From Clostridia bacterium (GTDB lineage: Bacteria; Bacillota; Clostridia; Christensenellales; Aristaeellaceae), in NCBI GenBank assembly GCA_017430225.1, contig JAFRNK010000027.1:1-43252 (forward strand): a DNA stretch of 43,252 nucleotides, written 5' to 3'. Positions within the stretch are counted from its first letter, which is position 1; every line of letters starts with the position of its first letter. Positions 1,898 through 41,458 of the stretch are shown here, one piece after another. Below the pieces are notes generated by a model. The model worked only from the letters and a program-made list of their open reading frames with translations. It did no database searches and had not been told where the DNA came from. A program made the position numbers and the translations under genes.

Positions 1898-2824
1898 TTA
1901 TTTCAGGAACCCGTTCACGATCTGTTCCTCAGCTTCCTGCTCGGTGAGGCCGAGGGTCATCAGCTTGATGATCTGGTCGCCGGCGATCTTGCCGATCGCG
2001 GCTTCGTGCACGAGCGCAGCGTCCACATTGTTGGCCTCAAGGCCGGGAACGGCCAGAATACGGCCGTGGTCCATAATGATGGAGTCGCATTCGGTGTGGC
2101 CGTTGCAGGCGGCGTTGCCCAGCAGCTTGGCGTCGAACTTCTGGTAGGAATCGTCCCTCGCGACGGAGCGGGAGACGACGTCCGCGCTGGCGCCGTCGCC
2201 GTTCAGGCTGACCTCGTAGATGCTGATGGCCTGCTGCTGGCCGTGGGTCATCAGGCGTTCACGGACGACCAGCTTGGCGTCTTTGGCCAGTTCGGCTTTT
2301 GTGGTGCGTGTCGTGTCGTCAACGCCCTTGATCTGCACCATTTCCATTTCTACGGAGCTGCCTTCTTCCTGATAAACCTCCGTCACGGGGTTCAGGATGC
2401 GCTTGCCCTTGCCGTTGCCAGAGCCATAGTGCTTTTCCACGTAGCGGATACGGGCGTTTTTGCCTACGAAAAAGCGGTGGATGCCATCATGCTGGCTGTC
2501 CTGGTTGCCGCAGTTGTCGATACCGCAGCCGGCAATGATCGTGACGTCGGAACCCTCTCCGATATAGAAGTCGTTGTAGACCACTTCGGTCAGGCCGCTT
2601 TCGGTCATGACCACGGGGATGTGCACGCTCTCGCGCTTGGTGCCTGGTTTGATGCGGATCTCGAGACCGCTCACGTCGGTCTTGGGGATGATCTCGATAT
2701 TGGCCGTGGACTGGCGTCCGGCGGATTTGCTGTTGGAACGGATGTTATATGCGCCTTCCGGTACCTCGTGCAGGTCAGCTACCTCGCGGAGAAGGCGTTT
2801 CTGGATCTCGTCAAGCTGCAGCAT
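1898..2824 (-). CDS. SufB/SufD-like Fe-S scaffold protein, short SMS type (SmsB-like)
   Basis: This is a scaffold protein of the SufBCD family, on which iron-sulfur clusters are assembled with the help of the SufC ATPase. At 308 residues it is far shorter than classical SufB (about 465) or SufD (about 400) and consists essentially of the beta-helix core plus the C-terminal SufC-binding helices. The C-terminal part carries TECDS (Cys246), matching the SufB core cysteine region, and VHEAAIGKI (Glu274), matching the conserved glutamate region. A CGIDNCG pair (Cys100, Cys105) in the first half is an additional possible metal ligand. It begins 3 bases after sufC on the same strand. No sufS, sufU or second sufB/D copy is adjacent, as expected for the minimal two-gene SMS (SmsCB) system described in anaerobes and archaea. 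The SMS assignment is inferred from size and gene order. Confidence 0.85.
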   Translation of the reverse strand: MLQLDEIQKRLLREVADLHEVPEGAYNIRSNSKSAGRQSTANIEIIPKTDVSGLEIRIKPGTKRESVHIPVVMTESGLTEVVYNDFYIGEGSDVTIIAGCGIDNCGNQDSQHDGIHRFFVGKNARIRYVEKHYGSGNGKGKRILNPVTEVYQEEGSSVEMEMVQIKGVDDTTRTTKAELAKDAKLVVRERLMTHGQQQAISIYEVSLNGDGASADVVSRSVARDDSYQKFDAKLLGNAACNGHTECDSIIMDHGRILAVPGLEANNVDAALVHEAAIGKIAGDQIIKLMTLGLTEQEAEEQIVNGFLK

Positions 2825-2827
2825 GCC

Positions 2828-3574
2828 TTATTTCCTCCCCGCTTCTTCGGTGTTGATCCGGCAATCCGGAATGGCGGACGATGTCCCGATCAGCTGGGGC
2901 AGGATCCGGTCCTTCGGGCCCTGGGCGGCTACCTGGCCGTCTTTCAGCACCACGACTTCGTCGGCGATATTGAGGATACGCTCCTGGTGGGAAATGATTA
3001 GGATGGAACTGCCGGCGATGGTTGCCCGCATCTCCTCAAACACTTCGATCAGGTTCTGGAAGCTCCACAGGTCGATACCGGCTTCCGGCTCGTCGAAGAT
3101 CGTGAGCGCGGCACTGCGGGCCAGCACGGTAGCGATCTCGATGCGCTTGAGCTCGCCGCCGGACAGGCTGGCGTTGACCTCGCGGTCGATATAGTCGCGG
3201 GCGCAGAGCCCGACACGGCTCAGGTACTGGCAGGCGTCGGCGACCGTCAGTGTTTTCCCGGCAGCCAGGCGGATCAGATCGAATACCTGGATGCCCTTGA
3301 AGCGGACGGGCTGCTGGAAGGCGAAAGCGATGCCCGCTTTGGCGCGTTCGGTGACGCTCCAGTCGGTGATGTCCTGACCGTTCCAGAGAATCTGGCCGGA
3401 GGCGGGCTTCTCAATGCCTGCAATCAGGCGGGCGAGGGTGGATTTCCCGCCCCCGTTGGGGCCGGTGACGACGGTCAGTTGTCCGTCAGGCAGGGTCAGA
3501 CTCACATTGCGGATGATCTCCTTATCCTGGCCCTCCTGGTCAACGTTAAAGGATATGTTTCTGAGTTCAAGCAT
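2828..3574 (-). CDS. sufC: SufC-family ATPase for Fe-S cluster assembly (SmsC-like)
   Basis: This is a soluble ABC-type ATPase that drives conformational change in the SufB/D scaffold during iron-sulfur cluster assembly. The 248 residues contain a Walker A motif GPNGGGKST near residues 39-47, a Q-loop in the segment AFQQPVRF, the ABC signature LSGGELKR and a Walker B LTIFDEPEAGID, followed by the switch histidine in ISHQER. The segment FDEPEAGIDLWSF is typical of SufC rather than of transporter ATPases. The only adjacent partner is the short SufB/D-like gene 3 bases downstream. The start ATG has only a weak Shine-Dalgarno sequence, and the gene lies 31 bases after the LRR lipoprotein gene. 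It may therefore be translated from, and transcribed with, the long upstream CotH operon. Confidence 0.93.
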   Translation of the reverse strand: MLELRNISFNVDQEGQDKEIIRNVSLTLPDGQLTVVTGPNGGGKSTLARLIAGIEKPASGQILWNGQDITDWSVTERAKAGIAFAFQQPVRFKGIQVFDLIRLAAGKTLTVADACQYLSRVGLCARDYIDREVNASLSGGELKRIEIATVLARSAALTIFDEPEAGIDLWSFQNLIEVFEEMRATIAGSSILIISHQERILNIADEVVVLKDGQVAAQGPKDRILPQLIGTSSAIPDCRINTEEAGRK

Positions 3575-3605: not shown

Positions 3606-5435
3606 TTATGTTTCCGGCGCTGTCTCGAACAGCTCCTTGCATGCGTTCCAGATTTCATCGGCGGTCACGGGCTCCCCGCCCAAGCTGGTGCCCTGGACGA
3701 CCCAGCCGGATGCTGGCGGCGACCTGTGGAAGCGATGGATGAGCCAGACTTCGCCGGTCCTGGAGCACAGAAAGATGTCTGTGACCGTGTCGTGTGCCGG
3801 CCCATTGTAATCCGTCCTGGTGATGTACCAGACCTGCTCGTACAGGGCGTATTCGGCCTCCCGGCTGTCATAGGTCCTGCTGTCCGACGGGATCCGGGTA
3901 TCAATCCTGATTATTGGATACACCTTGTGCCCCGCCAGCGCCCCGTTCTCCGGGCGGCGGACGGTCATGTCCTTTTCTTCCTCTTTGGACGGGAGCAGGT
4001 CCCGGAACAGGCGCGCATCGCGGGCAAAGACCGTGCTCGCCAGCGTTTCGGGCGGGATCCATGCGCCGGGCTGCAGGTTCAGCTTTTCCAGGCTGGTGCA
4101 GCCATCGAAGGCCAGGCTCTCAATAGTCCCGACCTTGCCTTCCATTGTAATCTCCCGGAGGTTCGGACAGTTCCGGAACGCTGACATCCGGATGCGTTCG
4201 ACCAAGGCAGGGATGGTGATGGAGGTCAGGGCGTCGCAGTTTTCAAAGGCGGAGATGCCGATCTCCGTCACGGTGTCTGCGATCACTACTTCCTCGACGG
4301 TCCTGTGGTTGTACATCGCTTTTTCGGCGATCGACGTGCCAGTCAGGGTGATCTTCCGGATGGACGCCGGCAATGGGCCGTCCCCTGGATGGCTGTGCAG
4401 CACATTGCCTGGGATCGTCAGCTCAGTCAGGCCCGTGCAGCCGGAAAACGCGCTGCCCGAGCAATAGGTCACAGAGTCAGGAACGACCAGAGTGGTCAGG
4501 CTGGTGCATTTCCGGAACGCGTCATGAGCAATCGAAGTGACGGAATCCGGGATGATGATCTCCGACAGGCTGGGGCAGTCGCTGAAGGAGCTGCCGATGC
4601 GCGTGAGCGAAGGGGGCAGCACGACGGACCGGAGGCTGGTGCAGCCATCAAAGGCCATGTCCTCGATCTCCGTCACGGAATCTGGGATTACGACGGAGGT
4701 CAGGCCATCGCAGCCCCAGAACGTACAGTCTCTGATCACTGTGATCGAATCCGGGATCTCGACCTCGGTCAGACTGTCACAGTTGCTGAAAGCCATTTCA
4801 CCGATCTCCGTCACGGAAGTCGGGATCGTGATGCCCGCCAGCTTCCCGCAGCTCCGGAATGCGCACTCCCCGATCTCCACCAGGGTTTCCGGGAGAGTGA
4901 CCGAAGCCATCTGCTTGCAACCTTCGAAAGCGCACTTGCCGATTCTTTTCACCGTGTCTGTGAGGGTCACGGAGGTGATGAAGTCGCAGCCCTTAAATTT
5001 ACTTTGGGTGATGAAGGGGCCGGTGACTGTCACGGCCAGGTTTTGGGGATATTTCAGGTATCCGCTGTCCGCTGCACGGAAAACGCGCTCATAGGAAGTG
5101 CCTTCGTCGCTGACCGTCGGTTTGCGGCCTGTGGTGCAGTGGCCGGGGAGCACCGCGTTCTTAAGCGCAGTGCAGCCGCCGAAGGCGTAATCTCCGATCT
5201 CAGTCACCGTACTGGGGACCGTGATCTCCTTAAGACGTGAGCACCCGTTGAAGGCATTCTTGCCGATCTTCCGGACGGAAGCGGGGATCTCCACGGTCTC
5301 GAAACCTCGGTTCTTGTAAGCGCCTTCTTCGATCTCGGTGGTGCCTTCGGGGATTACGAGATGGCTGCTCTCACAGCCGGTCAGCAGCGGCAATAAAAGC
5401 AGCAGCAGGAGCCATTTCCAGGGCTTCTTTGTCAT
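3606..5435 (-). CDS. BspA-type leucine-rich-repeat lipoprotein
   Basis: This is a predicted surface lipoprotein of 609 residues. An N-terminal lysine, a run of leucines and the lipobox LLTGC put the lipidated cysteine at about residue 21. From about residue 30 to 470 it is built of BspA/TpLRR-type (LRR_5) repeats of about 23 residues with the pattern xIGxxAFxxCxxLxxIxIPxSVTxI, roughly seventeen copies. The last 130 residues are not repetitive and end in a compact, Trp- and Tyr-containing domain I do not recognise. Such repeats usually bind proteins or polysaccharides outside the cell. I start it at the ATG at 5435, which has a GGGAGGTG box 6 bases upstream, rather than the GTG at 5444. It lies 17 bases after the VTC polymerase gene and 31 bases before sufC, so it is probably the outer-surface component of the CotH/DUF4956/VTC run. 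Confidence 0.88.
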   Translation of the reverse strand: MTKKPWKWLLLLLLLPLLTGCESSHLVIPEGTTEIEEGAYKNRGFETVEIPASVRKIGKNAFNGCSRLKEITVPSTVTEIGDYAFGGCTALKNAVLPGHCTTGRKPTVSDEGTSYERVFRAADSGYLKYPQNLAVTVTGPFITQSKFKGCDFITSVTLTDTVKRIGKCAFEGCKQMASVTLPETLVEIGECAFRSCGKLAGITIPTSVTEIGEMAFSNCDSLTEVEIPDSITVIRDCTFWGCDGLTSVVIPDSVTEIEDMAFDGCTSLRSVVLPPSLTRIGSSFSDCPSLSEIIIPDSVTSIAHDAFRKCTSLTTLVVPDSVTYCSGSAFSGCTGLTELTIPGNVLHSHPGDGPLPASIRKITLTGTSIAEKAMYNHRTVEEVVIADTVTEIGISAFENCDALTSITIPALVERIRMSAFRNCPNLREITMEGKVGTIESLAFDGCTSLEKLNLQPGAWIPPETLASTVFARDARLFRDLLPSKEEEKDMTVRRPENGALAGHKVYPIIRIDTRIPSDSRTYDSREAEYALYEQVWYITRTDYNGPAHDTVTDIFLCSRTGEVWLIHRFHRSPPASGWVVQGTSLGGEPVTADEIWNACKELFETAPET

Positions 5436-5452
5436 CCGGAACACCTCCCGGT

Positions 5453-6160
5453 TTATATATCATCCTTCCGCTCGAACCTTCTGCACCACGTGTACTTGGA
5501 CACGGCGCTGCGGCAGGCTTCGGGTACGGCCCAGGAGAGAACGTCGGCGATGTAGGGCGGGAGGATCCGGTCGTATTTGACTTCAAGGATCGTCCACGGC
5601 TCGTCGAAGGGGGAGACGGTAGGCACATAGGGATTGAAGAGGTCGATGCTCCCCAGGCCGGAATGGAGGTTTTTATCGAAGGTGATGCGCACTGTCTCCG
5701 CCGGATGCAGGTAAGCTTCCCGGTCATAGTCGACGAGGACGATAGGGTGCAGCAGGCGGGTGCGCATTTCCCGGTAGACGTCGCTCAGCAGGCCGTAGTG
5801 GGTCTTTTCCAGCCCCTCAGGGTCAGCTGCGATGAGCTGCTCTGCCAGGTCGCGGGGGATCTTCAGGGAACGCTTGGAAATAAGGTCGCCAAATTTGCTC
5901 TTGCATTCCAGGAAAATGGCGGAATCAGAGTAATTGTAGATGCGGATGCGGTACTTTTGGCGGTAGTGGATGCCGCTCATTTTATCGTACAGCGCATCGT
6001 CCTCCGCCGTATCGAAATAGAGGGAGCGGATGGAATACTGCCCTCCGTTCCTGGCGGCGTGGGGGTCCAGGCTGAGTACGGGCAGGAGGTTGCGGCGCAG
6101 CACATCGACCTGCAGAGGACTCAGCAGAAATTTAAGCTCGTGCCGGAGCGGGATGGCCAT
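5453..6160 (-). CDS. VTC-domain polyphosphate polymerase
   Basis: This is a CYTH/tunnel-fold enzyme of the VTC family. In yeast Vtc4 this domain polymerises the gamma phosphate of ATP into polyphosphate inside a basic tunnel. The 235 residues consist of this domain alone. The tunnel motifs are all present in order: the N-terminal HELKFL, SIRSLYFDT, the paired arginines in KYRIRIYN, LECKSK, YDREAY, RITFDKNL, and the late acid/lysine pair in ILEVKYD. This argues for an active catalyst. There is no SPX domain and no membrane segment of its own. The gene starts 2 bases after the DUF4956 gene and lacks its own clear ribosome binding site, so translational coupling is likely. In the family, a DUF4956 membrane protein commonly accompanies such bacterial VTC enzymes and may serve as the translocation pore; that role is inferred. 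Confidence 0.92.
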   Translation of the reverse strand: MAIPLRHELKFLLSPLQVDVLRRNLLPVLSLDPHAARNGGQYSIRSLYFDTAEDDALYDKMSGIHYRQKYRIRIYNYSDSAIFLECKSKFGDLISKRSLKIPRDLAEQLIAADPEGLEKTHYGLLSDVYREMRTRLLHPIVLVDYDREAYLHPAETVRITFDKNLHSGLGSIDLFNPYVPTVSPFDEPWTILEVKYDRILPPYIADVLSWAVPEACRSAVSKYTWCRRFERKDDI

Positions 6161-6162
6161 GC

Positions 6163-6855
6163 TTATGCACCGGTTTCAGTCTGCATGGCAACGAGGGTCG
6201 CGTCATGCACACCTTCGATGTCCAGCATACGCCCGACCAGGTCGGCCTTCTGATCCATCCTGACCTCATAGGTCATTTCGGCGCCGGCGCGGGTGACGGT
6301 CTTGGAGCGCAGACGGCTGAAGCGCACGCTGCGGCGGAGTTCCGCTTCGATATCGCCCTCGGCATATTCGTCATAGTGCATCACCAGCAAGTAGCTGTTG
6401 GGGTTGCGGAAATGCACGAAGGAGAGCACCAGCAGGATGACGGAGATCATGATGACGACCACCAGCGAGATGATGTACTGGCCCGCGCCGAGCAGGATGC
6501 CCATCGTGATGGCCCAGAACATATATACCGTGTCGAGGGGCTCTTTGACCGCGGTGCGGAAACGCACGATGGAGAGCGCACCGACCATGCCCATGGAGAG
6601 CGCCACGTTCGAGCCGATGGCCATGACCACGGGAGCGGTGACCAGCGTCAGCATGATCAGCGTCAGCGAGAAGTTCGGGCTGTACAGCACGCCGCGATAG
6701 GTCTTTTTGTAGACGAGGGAAATGATGATGCCGGCAATCAGCGCGGCGATCAGAACCAGCGCTACATTGAACGGGGTGAAGTTACTCAGCTGGTTGGCAA
6801 ACCAGTCCGATAAAGCATTGTTGCCGACGATGTCCTTAAAGCTGGTGGTTTCCAT
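6163..6855 (-). CDS. DUF4956 family membrane protein, probable partner of the VTC polymerase
   Basis: This is an integral membrane protein of 230 residues. An N-terminal span (about residues 30-50) and three or four further spans (about 63-150) surround the family hallmark MGMVGALSIVRFRTAVKEP. They are followed by a cytosolic C-terminal domain of about 80 residues with the look of a small ferredoxin-like fold. The arginine-bearing GALSIVRFR loop is the most conserved part of DUF4956 proteins. A CAGGAGG-type ribosome binding site lies just upstream of the ATG. The gene sits 24 bases downstream of the CotH gene and 2 bases upstream of the VTC gene. This order suggests that it forms a membrane complex with them, for example a polyphosphate export channel; this function has not been shown, to my knowledge, and is inference. 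Confidence 0.88.
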   Translation of the reverse strand: METTSFKDIVGNNALSDWFANQLSNFTPFNVALVLIAALIAGIIISLVYKKTYRGVLYSPNFSLTLIMLTLVTAPVVMAIGSNVALSMGMVGALSIVRFRTAVKEPLDTVYMFWAITMGILLGAGQYIISLVVVIMISVILLVLSFVHFRNPNSYLLVMHYDEYAEGDIEAELRRSVRFSRLRSKTVTRAGAEMTYEVRMDQKADLVGRMLDIEGVHDATLVAMQTETGA

Positions 6856-6879
6856 ACGATCCTCCTGAAAATGTGAATG

Positions 6880-9800
6880 TTATTTCTTAGCCAGAGGGTC
6901 TGCCGGCTGTTCGCCGAAGAGCTCCAGCATCTGCGCGTTGGTGAGATTGAAAGATTCCTTGACGTACTGCCACACGAAGTGGTGGCGGCGGTTGATGGTG
7001 TCGCGCATGCGGTTGATACGGGTGTTCCAGTAGCCAAGCGCGCCGTCCTTGGAGAGCGGCGAGTCGCTGTTGATCTTCTTGTCGTTGAGCGGCGCCCAGC
7101 GCTCGAAGTGCATGGGCATTTCGGGCTCCAGGATCGCCTTGATCTGGGTCAGCTTGTCGTTCATGACCTGAGGCGTCAGTGTACGGTATACGTAAGCCAG
7201 GCGCTCCAGGAACTTCTGCTTCATTTCGGCGTTTTCCAGAAGTTTCAGGAAGATCGTGTTGTTGATCAGCTTGTCGCCCATGCCCTTGGGTTTGGTGTAG
7301 GACTTCGGGCTGTTGAAGCTGGAAGAGAACATGCCGTAGTCGAGGTCGAAGATCAGCCACTTCCACTTCTGACCGGGTCCGGGCAGCCTGTAGAACATCG
7401 TGTTACCGATGTCGGAATTGCCGAAGAACATTTCGATGGCCAGGTAGTCGTAATAGCTGTCGACGTCCACGTTGTCCAGAATGTACTGCAGGTCGGCGGG
7501 GTTCTTCCCGGGGGAGGAGGCCTTCACGCGGTCGAGCAGCGCGCGGTATTCTTTGTTGCTGCCCTGTACGGTCGAGTAGCTGGCGCGCAGGATGGTGATC
7601 TGGTCGGCCAGTTCCATGTCCAGGCCTTCCCACTGCGCAATGCAGAAACGGTCCTTGCGCTCACGCATATTGTAATGACCGTAGTATTCGCCGTTGATGT
7701 AGACGATTACGGGCTTGAACGCGAGGTGGATGATATCGGTGTCCAGCAGGTCGATGAGCTGGCTCTGGAAACCGTCTGCCATGCGCGTCCATACGCAGTC
7801 GTTGCCGGAGTTGCGCAGGAGGAAGGACTTGTAATAGGTGAAAGGCCGGTCCTCGAACAGGGGGTATTCAAAGTACTTCTCCCCGTACTTGGCCTGAGCG
7901 CGGATCTTCAGGGTCTTCTGCGGCATGTCGAGGCTGTAGTCGCCGCCCAGCGCGATCTTGATGCCCTGGGAGATGACGGTGCCCGCGCCGTTCTGCTCAA
8001 AGACTTCGATATATGCCGGGCGCGGGATCTTGCCGAACTGGCGGTAGATCGCATTGCGGAAAGGAATGCCCTTGGATTTGTCCAGGTTGGGACCGGCGGT
8101 GAAGAGACCGTCAGTCTCGTTATACAGGTCGTATGGGTCGACGACGACGGAAACCACGGGCAGCGTGAAGTAGGTATTCATGATATAGGACGCTGTCACC
8201 GTGTCGGAGGGCTGCAGGCCGCTCTGGAATGAGCGGGCGCGCAGCACGGTGGAGTTCTGGAAACCGAGCGGCACGGAATAGACCGAGCTGTTTTCCAGCG
8301 TCGGCACGGATCCGTCCGTGGTATAGCGCACCGTTGTGCCTTCGGGCACGTCGATGGTCACGTACAGCGTGCCCTCGTACAGCCCGCCTTTTGCGGACAG
8401 GGTCGGCGCGGGGCTGTATCCTGCGAAGCCAACGCCGTTCTTCAGGCCGGGCGTCGGAACGTCATAATAAAAAAAACCGTTCGTCTCAAGGGAACGGCCG
8501 TAGGAGACGTCTGTGCGCATCTGGGAGATATACAGCTTGTCCAGCACGCGCCCCTGCGGATCGCTCAGGGTAATGGTCTCGCCGCCCGATTTGGTGATGC
8601 CGAAAGAAGCGTGCGGGCTCTGACCGGACCCGGAAGAGGTGGATTTATCACAGCGGACGATTTTGTATTCACCCGGATAGATCGTTGTCCCCATGGGAAA
8701 CTGCCACTTGCGCGGCCAGCCGATATTGTCGCTCAGGCCATGGAGGGACAGGTCGTAAGGCGAAGCTCCCGCATTGTACAGTTCCACCCAGTCGCAGGCC
8801 GCTTCGCCGTTCGCGGGCGCGACCTGGTCAGCCGAAGCCAGGACTTCAACGATGTAGACCTGGCTTTCATTGATCTGGCGCATATACCGGTCCGCGTCGG
8901 ACATGCCCTGCGGATTGTTTGGGCGGCCCGGTGTGGCGATCTGGAAGACGGACCACACGCTGGTGCCCGGATTCTTGCCGTAGGATACGTCCTTGCCGAT
9001 ATTCGGCACCGTGACGCGGTCGATCAGTTCGCCGGCCTTGGTAGACAGGACAATCGTCTCGCCTTCGCCGGACAGCTTATAGTTGGTGTGGGGGATGCCG
9101 TTCTGCTGCATTTTGTTCTTGCCCGAGCAGAACACGATATAGTACTGTCCGGGCTCGATGACCGCGCCTTCGGGGAAAAACCACTTGAGGGGCTTCTGCT
9201 CGTTGTCGCTCAGGGCAAAGTCGCTCAGGCGCAGGGTCGCTGTTCCGGCGTTATAGAGCTCGATCCAGTCGGAGAACTCGCCGTCCTCGTCCCTGAGTCC
9301 GGTTTTCGGCACCGGCATGACCTCGTTGATCATCAGGATGTCGGCTTCGATGTGGAAGTTGTCCAGGTAGGCGATATGGCCTTCGGGGGTCTTTTCATAA
9401 CCCGGGGCGTATTCGTCGGATTTGCGCCATTCGTGAAGGGAAACGCGCTGGTAGCTTTCGTCGGCGTTGAGGGTGGGCACGGTGACCTGGTCGAGGCCCA
9501 CGCCGTGCTGGTCGAACAGGAATACGGTGCAGCCGAGGCTGGACAGCTTGCATTTGGCGTGCAGCGTGCCGGCGGGATCGTCGCGGTTGACCTTGTCGCA
9601 GAACACGATCACGCGGCCGCCGGGCTCCAGCGTCATCTCTGGGAAGAGGAACTGGATCTTGTCCGAACGGTTGGACAGGCCGACGTTCTTCATCTCGATC
9701 GGGTGGTCGCTCGTGTTCCAGACCTCAAGCCAGTCGGCGAACGCGCCGTTTTCGTCCGGAAGCGCGCTGGCGTTGTCGGACATGATTTCACTCAGGTACA

Positions 9801-9960
9801 GTCCGGACGCGCTTGAAGCGCCGCCGCCCACGGAGTTCACGGCCTTGACGACCGGCTCCTTGGGCATCAGCAGGATCAGTGCCGCCAGGACGACGCCCAG
9901 GATGGCGATCAGCAGCAGCTTATCTTCTTTTTTATTATATCGGTTGTTGGATCGGCTCAT
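6880..9960 (-). CDS. Membrane-anchored CotH-kinase protein with three lamin-tail domains
   Basis: This predicted cell-surface protein has 1026 residues. After a short basic cytosolic head comes one membrane anchor (about residues 15-33). Three lamin-tail domains follow at about 54-165, 205-310 and 365-475, each opening with a segment like LYLSEIMSDN, LMINEVMPVP or VYIVEVLASA and containing DWxEx(W/Y)N. A chitobiase-like beta-sandwich (about 505-580, with the TVRYTTDGSVPT motif) comes next, then a CotH domain (about 600-960). The CotH domain shows the LLRNSGNDCVWTRMADGF, VYINGEYYGHYNMRERKDRF and WLIFDLDYGMF motifs, with the acidic and asparagine residues typical of the atypical CotH kinases that phosphorylate spore coat proteins. 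An in-frame extension upstream to 10203 would overlap queH and is rejected: the promoter at 10075-10103 and the ATG at 9960 (AAGGAAG 14 bases upstream) define the gene. It heads a six-gene run with DUF4956 and VTC genes. Confidence 0.9.
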   Translation of the reverse strand: MSRSNNRYNKKEDKLLLIAILGVVLAALILLMPKEPVVKAVNSVGGGASSASGLYLSEIMSDNASALPDENGAFADWLEVWNTSDHPIEMKNVGLSNRSDKIQFLFPEMTLEPGGRVIVFCDKVNRDDPAGTLHAKCKLSSLGCTVFLFDQHGVGLDQVTVPTLNADESYQRVSLHEWRKSDEYAPGYEKTPEGHIAYLDNFHIEADILMINEVMPVPKTGLRDEDGEFSDWIELYNAGTATLRLSDFALSDNEQKPLKWFFPEGAVIEPGQYYIVFCSGKNKMQQNGIPHTNYKLSGEGETIVLSTKAGELIDRVTVPNIGKDVSYGKNPGTSVWSVFQIATPGRPNNPQGMSDADRYMRQINESQVYIVEVLASADQVAPANGEAACDWVELYNAGASPYDLSLHGLSDNIGWPRKWQFPMGTTIYPGEYKIVRCDKSTSSGSGQSPHASFGITKSGGETITLSDPQGRVLDKLYISQMRTDVSYGRSLETNGFFYYDVPTPGLKNGVGFAGYSPAPTLSAKGGLYEGTLYVTIDVPEGTTVRYTTDGSVPTLENSSVYSVPLGFQNSTVLRARSFQSGLQPSDTVTASYIMNTYFTLPVVSVVVDPYDLYNETDGLFTAGPNLDKSKGIPFRNAIYRQFGKIPRPAYIEVFEQNGAGTVISQGIKIALGGDYSLDMPQKTLKIRAQAKYGEKYFEYPLFEDRPFTYYKSFLLRNSGNDCVWTRMADGFQSQLIDLLDTDIIHLAFKPVIVYINGEYYGHYNMRERKDRFCIAQWEGLDMELADQITILRASYSTVQGSNKEYRALLDRVKASSPGKNPADLQYILDNVDVDSYYDYLAIEMFFGNSDIGNTMFYRLPGPGQKWKWLIFDLDYGMFSSSFNSPKSYTKPKGMGDKLINNTIFLKLLENAEMKQKFLERLAYVYRTLTPQVMNDKLTQIKAILEPEMPMHFERWAPLNDKKINSDSPLSKDGALGYWNTRINRMRDTINRRHHFVWQYVKESFNLTNAQMLELFGEQPADPLAKK

Positions 9961-10074
9961 CGAATGAAATCCCGCTTCCTTCAAAATCTTGATCAGTCGT
10001 CTGTCACAGTGTTCAGGAGTTCCGCCGGACGCCGGTTGAAACGCGTTTCGGAACCCGCATGCACGACAGGATGC

Positions 10075-10103
10075 ATTATAACACAAATTCTGTACGGCGA
10101 CAA
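10075..10103 (-). promoter_or_regulatory. SigA-type promoter of the CotH-DUF4956-VTC-LRR(-sufCB) run
   Basis: On the minus strand a TTGTCG -35 box (10098-10103) is separated by exactly 17 bases from a perfect TATAAT -10 box (10075-10080). Transcription would start near 10068, giving a leader of about 108 bases before the ATG at 9960. No other convincing promoter was found in the short gaps between the six downstream genes. Confidence 0.8.
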
Positions 10104-10123: not shown

Positions 10124-10786
10124 TCAATTCTTTGTTTCAGGGTTTGACGCTTCCCGGTCCCGCTTTCTTTTTTCCGCCTGGGCTTTGGAATAGACGCAGC
10201 CACAGTAGTCCTGCCGGTACAGATGGTATTCGCCGCTCAGGCGGATGGAGCGCAGGTAGCCGTCGTGCTTCTTGAAGTCTGAAAACAGATAGGGGACGCC
10301 ATAGGCTTCCGCCAGCTCAGCGCCGATCCTGTTCAGCTTTTCGGCGTTTTTGTAGGGGCTGACCGAGAGCGTGGTGGTAAAGTAGTCGTAACTTCCCGCT
10401 TTTGCGGCGCGCGCGGTTTCTTCGAGACGCAGGCGGTAGCAGCGCGTGCAGCGCTCCCCGCCTTCCGGAACGTCTTCAAGGCCCTTTGCCAGTTCGAAAA
10501 AGCGCTCGTGCTCATAGGCGCCTTTTACGACCTCGGGCACTCCGGCCATCGGCATTTCGCCGGTCAGGCGGACGAGCTCGGCAAACCTGCGCTCGAACTC
10601 CGCTTCCGGCTCAATATTCGGATTATAGTAAAAGCACGTCACCTCGAACGCCTCCGTCAGCTTTTCAAGGCAGGCGGTCGAGCAGGGTGCGCAGCAGACG
10701 TGCAGCAGCAGGCGCGGGCGGACGCCCCGTCTGCGCAGGTTTTCGATTTCCCGGTCCATCAGGAGATCGTATCGGATTTTGGTCAT
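10124..10786 (-). CDS. queH: Epoxyqueuosine reductase QueH
   Basis: This cytosolic enzyme (formerly DUF208) carries out the last step of queuosine synthesis, reducing epoxyqueuosine to queuosine in tRNA; it is a non-homologous replacement for the cobalamin enzyme QueG. The 220 residues show the diagnostic cysteine sets: VCCAPCS (Cys31, Cys32, Cys35), CTRCYR (Cys113, Cys116) and YCGC (Cys195, Cys197), plus FKKHDGY and the YYNPNI segment. These cysteines bind an iron-sulfur cluster and a second metal in characterised homologues. The ATG at 10786 has GGAG about 6 bases upstream. It is divergent from the secreted protein gene at 10907. It ends just upstream of the CotH promoter, so it is not part of that operon. 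No other queuosine genes are in the window. Confidence 0.95.
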   Translation of the reverse strand: MTKIRYDLLMDREIENLRRRGVRPRLLLHVCCAPCSTACLEKLTEAFEVTCFYYNPNIEPEAEFERRFAELVRLTGEMPMAGVPEVVKGAYEHERFFELAKGLEDVPEGGERCTRCYRLRLEETARAAKAGSYDYFTTTLSVSPYKNAEKLNRIGAELAEAYGVPYLFSDFKKHDGYLRSIRLSGEYHLYRQDYCGCVYSKAQAEKRKRDREASNPETKN

Positions 10787-38520: not shown

Positions 38521-40677
38521 ATGGATCACAGCTCAAAAACAGGCATCACAACTAAACAGTTTCAGCTGCTGTCAGATCTGAACCTTGTATGGGATTTTAT
38601 GGTGGAGATATATGGCAGGGAAAACGGGAGCGGCATGCCGGCCCCGTTCTTTGAGCACGCGCTTCAGTCCTCCTGGATGGATGTGAGCTATACTTATCTG
38701 GACCGGCTGTGGTTTGACGGAAACAGAGTGGTTGCCTTTGTTTATTACGAATCGCCGGTGACGGATATCTATTTCAACGTCCGGAAAGGCTACGAGTTTC
38801 TAGCGGACGAGCTGGTTGACTATGCGGTTTCGGCCATGCCGGATTTCCGGCATCAGCAGCGGCTGGTACTTTTCGGTGGTCAGGAGTTTCTGAAAGAAGC
38901 GGCGGAAAGACGCGGATTCAGGATGGTGCATGAGTACCGTGATCGGGAATTCGACTTCAGAAACGAGCTGAATTATGAGCTCCCAGCCGGCTATCATTTT
39001 GTCGAGCCTGAGAACGTCGATGTTCTCAAGCTGGCGAAGCTCTGTTGGTACGGCTTTGACCACGGCGAGGACGGTCCGTTTGAAAACTGGGACAGGCAGG
39101 ATGACTCTTATGCATGGACGCCGGCCAAATCCTATAAGGGTGTGATCGGGCCTTATCTGGCCCCGTCGCCGCATTCCACGCACCAGTATGACGTTGTCAT
39201 TGCCGATGAAAAGGATGAATATGTGTGTTTTTCCGGCATGTGGTGGGTTCCGGAGAACAGGCTCGCGTATATGGAGCCGCTATGCACAGCGCCGGAATAC
39301 CGCAGGAAAGGTCTGGCCGCCGCTGCGCTCACGAAGCATTACCGCCGGATGAAAGCGCTCGGTGCCGCCCGCATGACGGGCGGAGCGGATCCATTCTATG
39401 AAAGGATCGGCTATGGCGAAGGCACTCATTGGACCTTCTGGAAAAAGGATTCTGATATTTCAGGGGAAAATGAACCGCTGATCGAACGTTTTGTCTCGCA
39501 TTCAAAGAATATCCTGAAGGATAACCTGGTGGGCATTTATCTGCACGGTTCAGCCGCCATGGGATGCTATCGGCCTGACAAGAGCGATCTGGATCTCCTG
39601 GTGGTGGTCAGTGAGCAGATGCCGGATCCTGTCAAACGGGAATACATGGATATGATAATCGGGCTGGATGCGGAAGGGCCTGCCAAAGGGATCGAAATGA
39701 GCGTTGTCACAGCTGACGTCTGCGACCCGCTTGTATACCCGACACCGTTCGACCTGCATTATTCCAGGATGCATCGCGGCTGGTATAATAGTGATCCGGA
39801 GGATTATATCCGGAAAATGAATGGTACAGATATCGACCTGGCTGCGCATTTCACCGTGATACGCACCAGAGGCCGATGCTTGTACGGCCGGCCGATCGCT
39901 GATGTGTTCGCTTCGGTTCCTGAGCGGTACTATACGGAATCCATCGTGAATGATGTATCCAGCGCCGAGAATGAGATCCTGGATCATCCCATGTATTTCA
40001 TTCTGAATCTGGCCAGGGTGCTGGCATACCTGGAGGAAAAATTGATCCTTTCCAAACAGGAAGGCGGCAAATGGGGACTGAAGGCTTTGCCGGAAAAATA
40101 CCATCCGCTCCTCAATTCCGCATTACGTGAATACGGCAGCGGGGGAGACGCGGAATATGATCCGGAGCTTGCCGTACGCTATGCGCGGTACATGCTGGAT
40201 CGGATATCAGGCGAAGCCGGCAGAATACGGGAACAGGCAGGAAGAATAGAACGCGCAAAGCCCGGGGATGCAGATGCTGTCGCACGTCTTGCCTGTGAGC
40301 TGTGGCCGGATCATTCGCCGGAAGAGATGGCTCCGGATTTCGAATCAGTGCTTTCTGATAATGGCGCCGCTGTTTTTCTGTATCGGCAAGCCGGCCGGGC
40401 AGCCGGTTTTGCACAGTGTCAGCTCCGCCATGATTATGTGGAAGGAACTGAGACCAGTCCTGTCGGTTACCTTGAAGGAATCTATGTCCAGGAACCGCTG
40501 CGGCGTCAGGGAATTGCCCGCAAGCTGCTGGACGCCTGTGAAGACTGGGCCAGGGAGCAGGGCTGCACTGAATTTGCCAGCGACTGCGAACTCACGAACC
40601 TGGAAAGCCAGCGCTTTCATCGGGCTGTCGGATTTGAGGAGGCGAACCGCATTGTCGCGTATGTCAGGAAACTTTGA
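38521..40677 (+). CDS. Fusion: GNAT acetyltransferase + ANT-like nucleotidyltransferase + AAC(6')-like acetyltransferase
   Basis: This single 718-residue cytosolic protein has at least three enzyme domains. Residues 1-315 look like a tandem GNAT, the second half with the acetyl-CoA loop APEYRRKGLAAAAL (257-270). Residues about 320-575 form an ANT/AadA-like nucleotidyltransferase: YLHGSAAMGCYRPDKSDLDL (340-359), with the metal-binding pair Asp356 and Asp358 in the GSx(n)DxD pattern. A C-terminal helical part resembles spectinomycin/streptomycin adenylyltransferases. Residues 577-718 closely follow the AAC(6') pattern: ACELWPDHSPEEM, LEGIYVQEPLRRQGIARKLL, FASDCELTN and SQRFHRAVGFEEANRI. The gene has its own promoter and overlaps the APH(3')-like gene by 17 bases. 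Drug resistance is likely but the actual substrates are inferred. The chain is unbroken, with no frameshift. Confidence 0.88.
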   Translation: MDHSSKTGITTKQFQLLSDLNLVWDFMVEIYGRENGSGMPAPFFEHALQSSWMDVSYTYLDRLWFDGNRVVAFVYYESPVTDIYFNVRKGYEFLADELVDYAVSAMPDFRHQQRLVLFGGQEFLKEAAERRGFRMVHEYRDREFDFRNELNYELPAGYHFVEPENVDVLKLAKLCWYGFDHGEDGPFENWDRQDDSYAWTPAKSYKGVIGPYLAPSPHSTHQYDVVIADEKDEYVCFSGMWWVPENRLAYMEPLCTAPEYRRKGLAAAALTKHYRRMKALGAARMTGGADPFYERIGYGEGTHWTFWKKDSDISGENEPLIERFVSHSKNILKDNLVGIYLHGSAAMGCYRPDKSDLDLLVVVSEQMPDPVKREYMDMIIGLDAEGPAKGIEMSVVTADVCDPLVYPTPFDLHYSRMHRGWYNSDPEDYIRKMNGTDIDLAAHFTVIRTRGRCLYGRPIADVFASVPERYYTESIVNDVSSAENEILDHPMYFILNLARVLAYLEEKLILSKQEGGKWGLKALPEKYHPLLNSALREYGSGGDAEYDPELAVRYARYMLDRISGEAGRIREQAGRIERAKPGDADAVARLACELWPDHSPEEMAPDFESVLSDNGAAVFLYRQAGRAAGFAQCQLRHDYVEGTETSPVGYLEGIYVQEPLRRQGIARKLLDACEDWAREQGCTEFASDCELTNLESQRFHRAVGFEEANRIVAYVRKL

Positions 40678-41458
40678 GCGGATCCCAGCTTCCATGGCCA
40701 GGATCCTCGGCGGTCAGGCCGGGAAAGCGGACGGGCTGGGAAAGTCCGGAGCGCAGGTGGTGCTTTTTGACGATTATGTCCTGAAAGTCCGTCCTGCGGA
40801 CGGTTGGGATACTGTCGATACCCAGATCCTCCTGTGGCTGGAAGGAAAAGCCCCTGTCCCGCGGGTGGCGGCGCACGAAGTGGAAGACGGTCTGGACTGG
40901 CTGCTGATGACCCGGGTCAGGGGGCAGGAACTGTGCAAGCCTGCAGTAATGGAAAACCCGGCGCTGCTGCTGGACTGCATGGCGGAAGCGCTGCATATCC
41001 TGTGGTCGATCCCTGTGGAAGACTGTCCGTTTGAACGGCCTGTAAATGATATCCTTGCCCACGCGGAGGAAGCGATCCTGACCGGACGGTTCGACGCATC
41101 CGACTGTGAGCCGGAGACTTTCGGCCCTCGCGGATTTGAAAGCCCGAAGGCGCTGCTGGACTGGCTGAAAGAGAACCTGCCCGCGCAGAAACGTGTGCTG
41201 ACGCACGGCGATTTCTGCCTGCCGAATCTGTTCACGGACGGAAAACGGTTTACGGGCTTTATCGATGTCGGCAATGCCGGAATCGGCGACCGCTGGATGG
41301 ATCTGGCGCTGGGCTGGCGCAGCCTGAAACATAACAGCGATGGGCATTACGGGCATGTTTATCCGAACATCGATCCGGATGATCTCTTCCGCGCGGCGGG
41401 GGTCCCCAAAGATGAGGAAAAGCTGCGCTACTATATCCTGTTGGATGAGCTGAACTGA
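40661..41458 (+). CDS. APH(3')-like aminoglycoside O-phosphotransferase
   Basis: This is an antibiotic kinase-fold enzyme that transfers phosphate from ATP to a hydroxyl of an aminoglycoside. At 265 residues it equals the APH(3') family length. Visible are the ATP lysine in YVLKV (Lys42), LLMTRVRGQEL, the catalytic loop THGDFCLPNLF (Asp184, Asn189), the metal-binding GFIDVGNAGIGDRWMDLAL (Asp202), and the C-terminal LRYYILLDELN. That tail is nearly the terminal motif of APH(3')-III. The ORF remains open upstream within the preceding gene, but the ATG at 40661 gives the family-typical length; ATG 40694 is the alternative. It overlaps the fusion gene by 17 bases and shares its promoter, so nucleotidyl-, acetyl- and phosphotransferase activities are made together. 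Confidence 0.92.
   Translation: MSGNFERIPASMARILGGQAGKADGLGKSGAQVVLFDDYVLKVRPADGWDTVDTQILLWLEGKAPVPRVAAHEVEDGLDWLLMTRVRGQELCKPAVMENPALLLDCMAEALHILWSIPVEDCPFERPVNDILAHAEEAILTGRFDASDCEPETFGPRGFESPKALLDWLKENLPAQKRVLTHGDFCLPNLFTDGKRFTGFIDVGNAGIGDRWMDLALGWRSLKHNSDGHYGHVYPNIDPDDLFRAAGVPKDEEKLRYYILLDELN

What the first reader, a model, noticed from the sequence alone, without database searches (positions are those of the whole stretch)
3606..10103. CotH kinase / DUF4956 / VTC polymerase / LRR lipoprotein operon: a candidate surface polyphosphate or phosphorylation system
Four consecutive genes from one strong promoter encode a membrane-anchored CotH-type kinase with lamin-tail domains, a DUF4956 membrane protein, a VTC enzyme with all tunnel motifs and a surface LRR lipoprotein. 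VTC enzymes make polyphosphate from ATP and, in yeast, pass it through a membrane. CotH domains are atypical kinases that act outside the cytosol. Together they could make polyphosphate, export it through DUF4956 and attach it, or phosphate, to a surface protein such as the LRR lipoprotein. I know of no experimental description of such a system.
Basis: partly seen in the sequence, partly recalled or inferred. Interest (0 to 1): 0.8.

Follow-up and report, generated by a model that had tools for sequence, protein, structure and literature searches.

The report
Surface kinase paired with polyphosphate maker
A gut-type bacterium carries a three-gene set (a kinase anchored outside the cell, a polyphosphate-type polymerase and a membrane protein) that recurs in many bacteria and hints at how a kinase could work outside the cell, where ATP is scarce.

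Summary
All four genes are present. CotH, DUF4956 and VTC form a recurrent module; the LRR lipoprotein does not belong to it. In 147 genomes of the class, 90 of 97 VTC hits have DUF4956 beside them and 42 of 97 also CotH. The LRR gene is absent beside VTC in 71 of 71 scored named relatives.

New here: exported CotH follows VTC, the cytosolic spore-coat CotH does not. In 249 Bacilli, 42 of 42 genomes with exported CotH have VTC, against 2 of 25 with only the spore type (the cut was set after seeing the data). In the class: 56 of 60 CotH genomes against 20 of 87 others; PPK1 shows no such tie. Five genomes break the rule.

The linkage was in print for Pel loci (PMC7112168, PMC12345266), but 30 of 35 class genomes with the linked set have no PelG match, the window's among them.

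Best reading: VTC and DUF4956 supply CotH from inside, perhaps with polyphosphate as outside phosphate donor. That step is inferred; a published VTC deletion with no reported effect speaks against it.

The parts
6880..9960 (-). cotH: N-terminal membrane anchor, three lamin tail domains, Fn3-associated domain, CotH kinase domain (domain at 6976-7944)
6163..6855 (-). DUF4956 membrane protein, weakly MgtC-like, with conserved RFR motif (R98-F99-R100)
5453..6160 (-). VTC-domain (triphosphate tunnel) enzyme, polymerase-type tunnel residues
3606..5444 (-). LRR_5 (BspA-type) lipoprotein; in the same run of genes but judged a local addition, not part of the module
10075..10103 (-). candidate sigma-70-like promoter (consensus match only)
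10124..10786 (-). queH, upstream neighbour, not part of the module
1898..3574 (-). SufC-like and SufB/D-like genes, downstream neighbours, not part of the module

Best explanation
CotH, VTC and DUF4956 form one functional module. CotH is an atypical kinase anchored in the membrane with its kinase domain outside. VTC is a polymerase-type tunnel enzyme that makes polyphosphate from ATP on the inner face. DUF4956 holds VTC at the membrane and passes the chain out. The exported chain is what CotH kinases need in order to work where ATP is scarce: in the most economical version it is their phosphoryl donor, for phosphorylating surface polysaccharide (Pel in some hosts) or surface proteins. One VTC-DUF4956 pair could serve several CotH kinases of a cell (ten CotH and two pairs in the window's genome). 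Shown: presence, order, conservation, linkage, and co-occurrence of exported but not spore-type CotH with VTC. Inferred: polymer synthesis, export, use by CotH, and the substrate.
For: Linkage: 90 of 97 VTC hits with DUF4956 within 2.5 kb and 42 of 97 with CotH within 5 kb, all same strand, none on the other strand. Co-occurrence: CotH with VTC 56 of 60 against 20 of 87 genomes without CotH; where no CotH is linked, still 21 of 25 against 20 of 86. Bacilli: exported CotH 42 of 42, spore type only 2 of 25, no CotH 25 of 182. In genera g280 and g301 VTC tracks the exported kind. PPK1 shows no positive tie (16 of 60 against 36 of 87). Tunnel of polymerase rather than hydrolase type: two of the three second-metal glutamates (PMC4641920, passages) are invariant Arg/Lys, and the Lys aligned with the catalytic Lys of Vtc4 is invariant. 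Eukaryotic VTC couples synthesis to translocation through a basic channel (PMC9911596, passages). PelG-CotH fusion proteins tie CotH to polysaccharide export. Control genomes: of 14, CotH is found in B. subtilis, C. glutamicum and M. acetivorans, VTC and DUF4956 in the latter two and in Bacteroides ihuae.
Against: In S. intermedius no effect on Pel or aggregation is reported for deletion of the VTC gene, while deletion of the CotH gene has one (PMC12345266, passages); a donor should be missed. Five genomes have an exported CotH and no VTC match (G003, G018, G109, G145, G212), and the four of the class lack PPK1 too. 20 of 76 VTC genomes of the class have no CotH. No polyphosphate activity of these proteins and no DUF4956 fold was tested. 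Genomes are related; in Bacilli the unlinked cases are ten of one genus plus one. VTC keeps one of the three glutamates (E8) of the hydrolase second-metal site.
Confidence: 0.35

Rival explanations
1. Regulatory module: DUF4956 (MgtC-like membrane part with a cytosolic ACT-like domain) and VTC sense or set a phosphate or nucleotide state and control exopolysaccharide output, while CotH phosphorylates a component of export machinery or matrix, using ATP that reaches the surface.
For: In S. intermedius deletion of the DUF4956 gene raises Pel and lowers aggregation, deletion of the CotH gene lowers both (PMC12345266, passages); PMC7112168 (passages) also suggests regulation of Pel by phosphorylation. 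PelG-CotH fusions. Two-component genes lie in the same run as the set in several linked loci. Weak MgtC similarity.
Against: 30 of 35 class genomes with the linked set have no PelG match. It does not by itself explain why exported but not cytosolic CotH follows VTC.
Confidence: 0.3
2. One reading: polyphosphate is made, exported through DUF4956 and kept at or attached to the surface as a polymer in its own right; CotH attaches it or modifies what it binds to.
For: Same linkage data. VTC-DUF4956 also occurs without CotH: 20 of 76 VTC genomes. Some of those pairs lie beside secreted Cthe_2159 carbohydrate-binding-domain proteins (three proteins tested), so the pair may have other surface clients.
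Against: No attachment chemistry or conserved acceptor found; the LRR protein is not conserved.
Confidence: 0.2
3. The genes are merely inherited together, without a shared function.
For: Genomes in the samples are related, and much of the co-occurrence comes from linked copies.
Against: Linked always on the same strand, unlinked copies co-occur too, while the spore-type relative and PPK1 do not.
Confidence: 0.04

Closest known systems
Pel accessory genes cotH / poly-phosphate polymerase / DUF4956 of streptococci, clostridia and bifidobacteria (PMC7112168, passages) and S. intermedius SIR_1594/1593/1592 (PMC12345266, passages)
   Same: Same three protein families side by side; deletions of the CotH and DUF4956 homologues alter Pel and aggregation there.
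   Different: The window's genome has no PelG match (82% complete) and no Pel gene among the neighbours scanned. Gene order is CotH-DUF4956-VTC, CotH carries three lamin tail domains, and an LRR gene follows.
NELoc-2 of Clostridium perfringens (PMC2879425, passages)
   Same: VTC-domain genes next to a CotH gene; the adjoining 'tubulin/FtsZ' proteins of 222-226 aa may be DUF4956 (inferred from size and place, not tested).
   Different: NELoc-2 also lists a chitin-synthase-like glycosyltransferase and a HEAT protein, as in 7 of 42 linked loci here; the window does not have them nearby.
Eukaryotic VTC complex (Vtc4; PMC9911596, passages)
   Same: Tunnel domain with the same key residues; profile match to Vtc4 at 4.4e-21.
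   Different: No SPX domain in the protein and a DUF4956 protein beside it instead of the yeast subunits' own membrane domain.
Spore coat kinase CotH of Bacillus (structure 5jd9)
   Same: Same kinase family; the profile of the linked kinases (40 rows, two of them spore type) finds 5jd9 at 1.3e-65.
   Different: The spore type has no N-terminal anchor or signal and, as a rule, no VTC in the genome; it is one group in the tree.

Membership tests
VTC polyphosphate polymerase (triphosphate tunnel) | VTC domain with conserved tunnel residues and catalytic Lys | tested here: met
   Pfam 2e-38; 20 invariant columns in 56 rows; aligned with Vtc4
VTC polyphosphate polymerase (triphosphate tunnel) | Second-metal (hydrolase) glutamates replaced | tested here: inconclusive
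   Two of three positions are invariant Arg/Lys, one keeps Glu (E8); positions set by motif, reading PMC4641920 passages
VTC polyphosphate polymerase (triphosphate tunnel) | Makes polyphosphate from ATP | not testable with these tools
   needs enzyme assay
Eukaryotic VTC complex | SPX domain in the subunit | tested here: not met
   only the VTC domain is found in the protein
CotH kinase family | CotH domain with conserved active-site residues | tested here: met
   Pfam 1.7e-31; G754, G842, D953 invariant, E848, N929, D931 in 90% or more of 40 rows; aligned with 5jd9
CotH kinase family | Kinase activity | not testable with these tools
   needs enzyme assay
Spore-coat CotH | Short protein without signal or anchor, in the spore-type group of the tree | tested here: not met
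   anchor by eye, 1027 codons from the ATG at 9960; the window's kinase lies outside the spore group
Pel accessory cassette | cotH, polyphosphate polymerase and DUF4956 contiguous | tested here: met
Pel accessory cassette | Lies in a Pel locus | tested here: not met
   no PelG match in the genome (82% complete), none among neighbours scanned
DUF4956 as polyphosphate channel | Conducts polyphosphate | not testable with these tools
   no sequence relative of known structure; structure prediction off

The most novel reading that the evidence does not exclude
Polyphosphate is the phosphoryl currency of surface kinases: VTC and DUF4956 make and export it so that CotH kinases, which sit where ATP is scarce, can phosphorylate polysaccharides and proteins of the cell surface, in Bacteria and perhaps also in Archaea (a Bathyarchaeota MAG contig carries DUF4956-CotH-VTC, L211). 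On this view the spore coat kinase is a branch that works in the ATP-rich cytosol and does not need the supply.
Probability: 0.22. Interest if true: 0.9.

Novelty: new variant of a known kind. Interest (0 to 1): 0.62.

Why it matters
How a bacterial kinase could work outside the cell, and what the bacterial VTC and DUF4956 families do, are open questions. The rule found here (exported CotH goes with VTC, spore-type CotH does not) makes both directly testable. It also widens a cassette that print ties to Pel biofilms to a larger set of bacteria, many of them gut MAGs.

Tried and rejected
LRR lipoprotein as part of the system: rejected. The second VTC-DUF4956 pair of the same genome (L013) has no CotH beside it and follows a NAGPA-type phosphodiester glycosidase gene; kept as context. 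PPK1 as supplier in the genomes that break the rule: none of the four class exceptions has a match.

Choices made after seeing data. In Bacilli I first split CotH by open-frame length at 400 aa: 43 of 45 genomes with a long CotH had VTC (exceptions G448, G531) and 1 of 22 with only short ones. A hydrophobicity cut of 1.7 then gave 38 of 39 exported and 6 of 28 others. The figures reported (42 of 42; 2 of 25) use length from the first start of at least 480 aa, chosen because one search showed two clear length groups (407 or less, 483 or more); the hydrophobicity gap between the groups is narrow (at most 1.41 against at least 1.49). G531 and G527 fall in the short group. G448 is long only by an in-frame upstream stretch of doubtful coding; its kinase domain lies in the spore group of the tree, so I set it there.

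A tree-aware regression was not done. In the class sample the unlinked CotH genes were not each read for a signal, except those of the window's genome and the exceptions, so 'exported' there is partly assumed.

Rows dropped before counts: second halves of split CotH hits; one CotH row (G026) and four DUF4956 rows below cut-off, while one split CotH gene (G071) is still counted twice there; G302, below cut-off, in the phylum sample; G065 (26 bits, 2116 aa) in the class test; G432 (broken fragments) counted as no CotH; 60 of 89 Bacilli CotH rows used in the tree; 9 of 80 named relatives not scored because my gene caller missed VTC. The samples overlap: at least six genomes are in both class and phylum samples, and at least six in both phylum and Bacilli samples.
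Full report
What is in the window. On the minus strand CotH (ATG at 9960, end 6880), DUF4956 (6855-6163), VTC (6160-5453) and an LRR_5 lipoprotein (5444-3606) follow each other with 2 to 24 bases between them, then SufC-like and SufB/D-like genes. QueH lies upstream. The genome is an 82% complete assembly of 2.65 Mb. Its nearest named relatives by VTC are MAGs titled Clostridiales or Clostridia, many from rumen or gut. It has ten CotH matches and two VTC-DUF4956 pairs, and no match to PPK1 or PelG.

Active sites. In 56 VTC proteins 20 columns are invariant, the tunnel residues among them, and the family profile aligns them with yeast Vtc4. In tunnel hydrolases three glutamates bind a second metal (PMC4641920, passages). 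Two of these positions are invariant Arg and Lys here, as in Vtc4, and one keeps Glu, so the enzyme looks more like a polymerase than a hydrolase. CotH keeps the family's conserved acids. DUF4956 has R100 invariant and R98 and F99 in 90% or more of 58 rows, no relative of known structure by sequence and a weak MgtC match.

Linkage. In 147 genomes of the class there are 97 VTC hits in 76 genomes, 92 DUF4956 hits above cut-off in 74 and 120 CotH rows above cut-off in 61. 90 of 97 VTC have DUF4956 within 2.5 kb on the same strand; 42 of 97 also have CotH within 5 kb on the same strand, none on the other. Of 80 named relatives 71 could be scored: DUF4956 is within two genes of VTC in 70, CotH within three genes in 66, an LRR relative in none. 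These relatives were chosen by likeness to VTC of CotH-linked loci, so their CotH share is not a free sample. In the relative with 96% identical VTC (L161) the DNA matches the window on both sides of the LRR gene but not in it. So the LRR gene is a local addition.

The cassette beyond Pel. Print already links CotH, a polyphosphate polymerase and DUF4956 with Pel operons (PMC7112168, passages), and NELoc-2 of C. perfringens lists VTC and CotH genes (PMC2879425, passages; also PMC11677781, passages). PMC12345266 (passages) deleted the genes in S. intermedius and says its analyses fail to find the arrangement of the three outside the Pel locus; how widely it looked I did not see. Here 5 of 147 class genomes have PelG. 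All five have a VTC-linked CotH, but 30 of the 35 genomes with a linked set have no PelG match. Other linked loci carry a weakly GH72-like protein (8 of 42) with a HEAT protein and a family 2 glycosyltransferase (7 of 42), or two-component genes, or nothing that I could name in the fetched stretch. PelG-CotH fusion proteins exist: L291 and L227 are confirmed by Pfam and two more (G452, G508) have a like N-terminus. In seven named loci a separate protein follows the set; one was tested and has two lamin tail domains.

Exported CotH follows VTC. In the class 56 of 60 CotH genomes have VTC against 20 of 87 others. Counting only genomes in which no CotH is linked to VTC, 21 of 25 have VTC against 20 of 86. 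PPK1 shows no positive tie: 16 of 60 against 36 of 87. In a phylum sample of 199, which shares at least six genomes with the class sample, 24 genomes have both, 3 CotH only and 3 VTC only; two of the CotH-only ones have a short CotH without signal (G258, G272), the third (G212) an exported one. This led to a prediction: spore-type CotH, which works in the cytosol, should not follow VTC. It was tested in 249 Bacilli, a few of which (such as G166, G207, G243, G272) had been seen before. 88 of 89 CotH rows were read: 54 are at least 480 aa with a hydrophobic N-terminal stretch, 33 are at most 407 aa, and G448 was set with the spore type on tree evidence. Genomes with exported CotH: 42 of 42 have VTC. 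Spore type only: 2 of 25, one of them (G527) a partial VTC match. No CotH: 25 of 182. Earlier cuts gave 43 of 45 and 1 of 22, and 38 of 39 and 6 of 28; see Tried and rejected. In genera g280 and g301 the one genome with exported CotH has VTC and the five sister genomes with only the spore type do not. The tests are simple Fisher counts and ignore relatedness.

Results against. Five genomes have an exported CotH and no VTC match (G003, G018, G109, G145, G212); at 93 to 99% completeness assembly gaps can explain some, probably not all. In Bacilli the genomes with exported CotH and VTC apart are ten of one genus plus one other, so they are few independent cases. 20 of 76 class genomes with VTC have no CotH. 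In S. intermedius no effect on Pel or aggregation is reported for the VTC deletion.

Tree. In a quick tree of 119 CotH domains the 24 spore-type rows form one group (SH-aLRT 99). VTC-linked kinases occur in every other large part, and the window's kinase sits in the lamin-tail part, grouped with four others of its own genome. The root is the midpoint, so the direction of change is a guess.

Mechanism. That the three proteins work together I hold at about 0.9; that VTC makes polyphosphate, about 0.65; that DUF4956 carries it out, about 0.35; that CotH uses it as donor, about 0.2. The donor idea is the boldest reading and would explain at once the unlinked co-occurrence, the exemption of the cytosolic kinase and the polymerase-type tunnel. 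The regulatory reading is nearly as good and fits the published deletions better.

What was looked for in print. The listings of searches showed no paper on the activity of a bacterial VTC-domain polymerase next to CotH and none that states the rule above. Several listings were capped (one search shows 20 of 86 papers), and most subscription papers and all preprints are missing from the library, so this is no proof of absence. The PNAS paper on CotH kinases that I recalled is not held.

Noticed in passing
L013:6637-9332 (contig C64 of the window's genome): A second VTC-DUF4956 pair lies downstream of a NAGPA-type phosphodiester glycosidase gene, with no CotH beside it.
   Followed up: partly
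L093, L094, L096, L099, L106, L107, L109, L110: Where VTC-DUF4956 has no CotH, a protein of one cluster often lies beside it (7 of 20 unlinked loci, plus L109). The three proteins tested (L096, L099, L109) are Cthe_2159 carbohydrate-binding-domain proteins, as if they took the place of CotH.
   Followed up: partly
L291:865-3981 and L227:5868-8975: PelG and CotH are fused in one protein in some Bacilli; two more genomes, G452 and G508, have a like N-terminus.
   Followed up: partly
L192, L193, L195, L196, L201, L204, L205: A membrane protein follows CotH-VTC-DUF4956; the one tested (L192) has two lamin tail domains, and several have an Arg/Ser/Pro-rich N-terminal tail. A possible partner or substrate of the kinase.
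   Followed up: partly
L211: A Bathyarchaeota MAG contig carries DUF4956-CotH-VTC, so the set may reach Archaea; misbinning was not ruled out.
   Followed up: no
window 38521-41458: A GNAT protein with an AadA-type C-terminal domain, followed by an ORF that by eye resembles aminoglycoside phosphotransferases.
   Followed up: no
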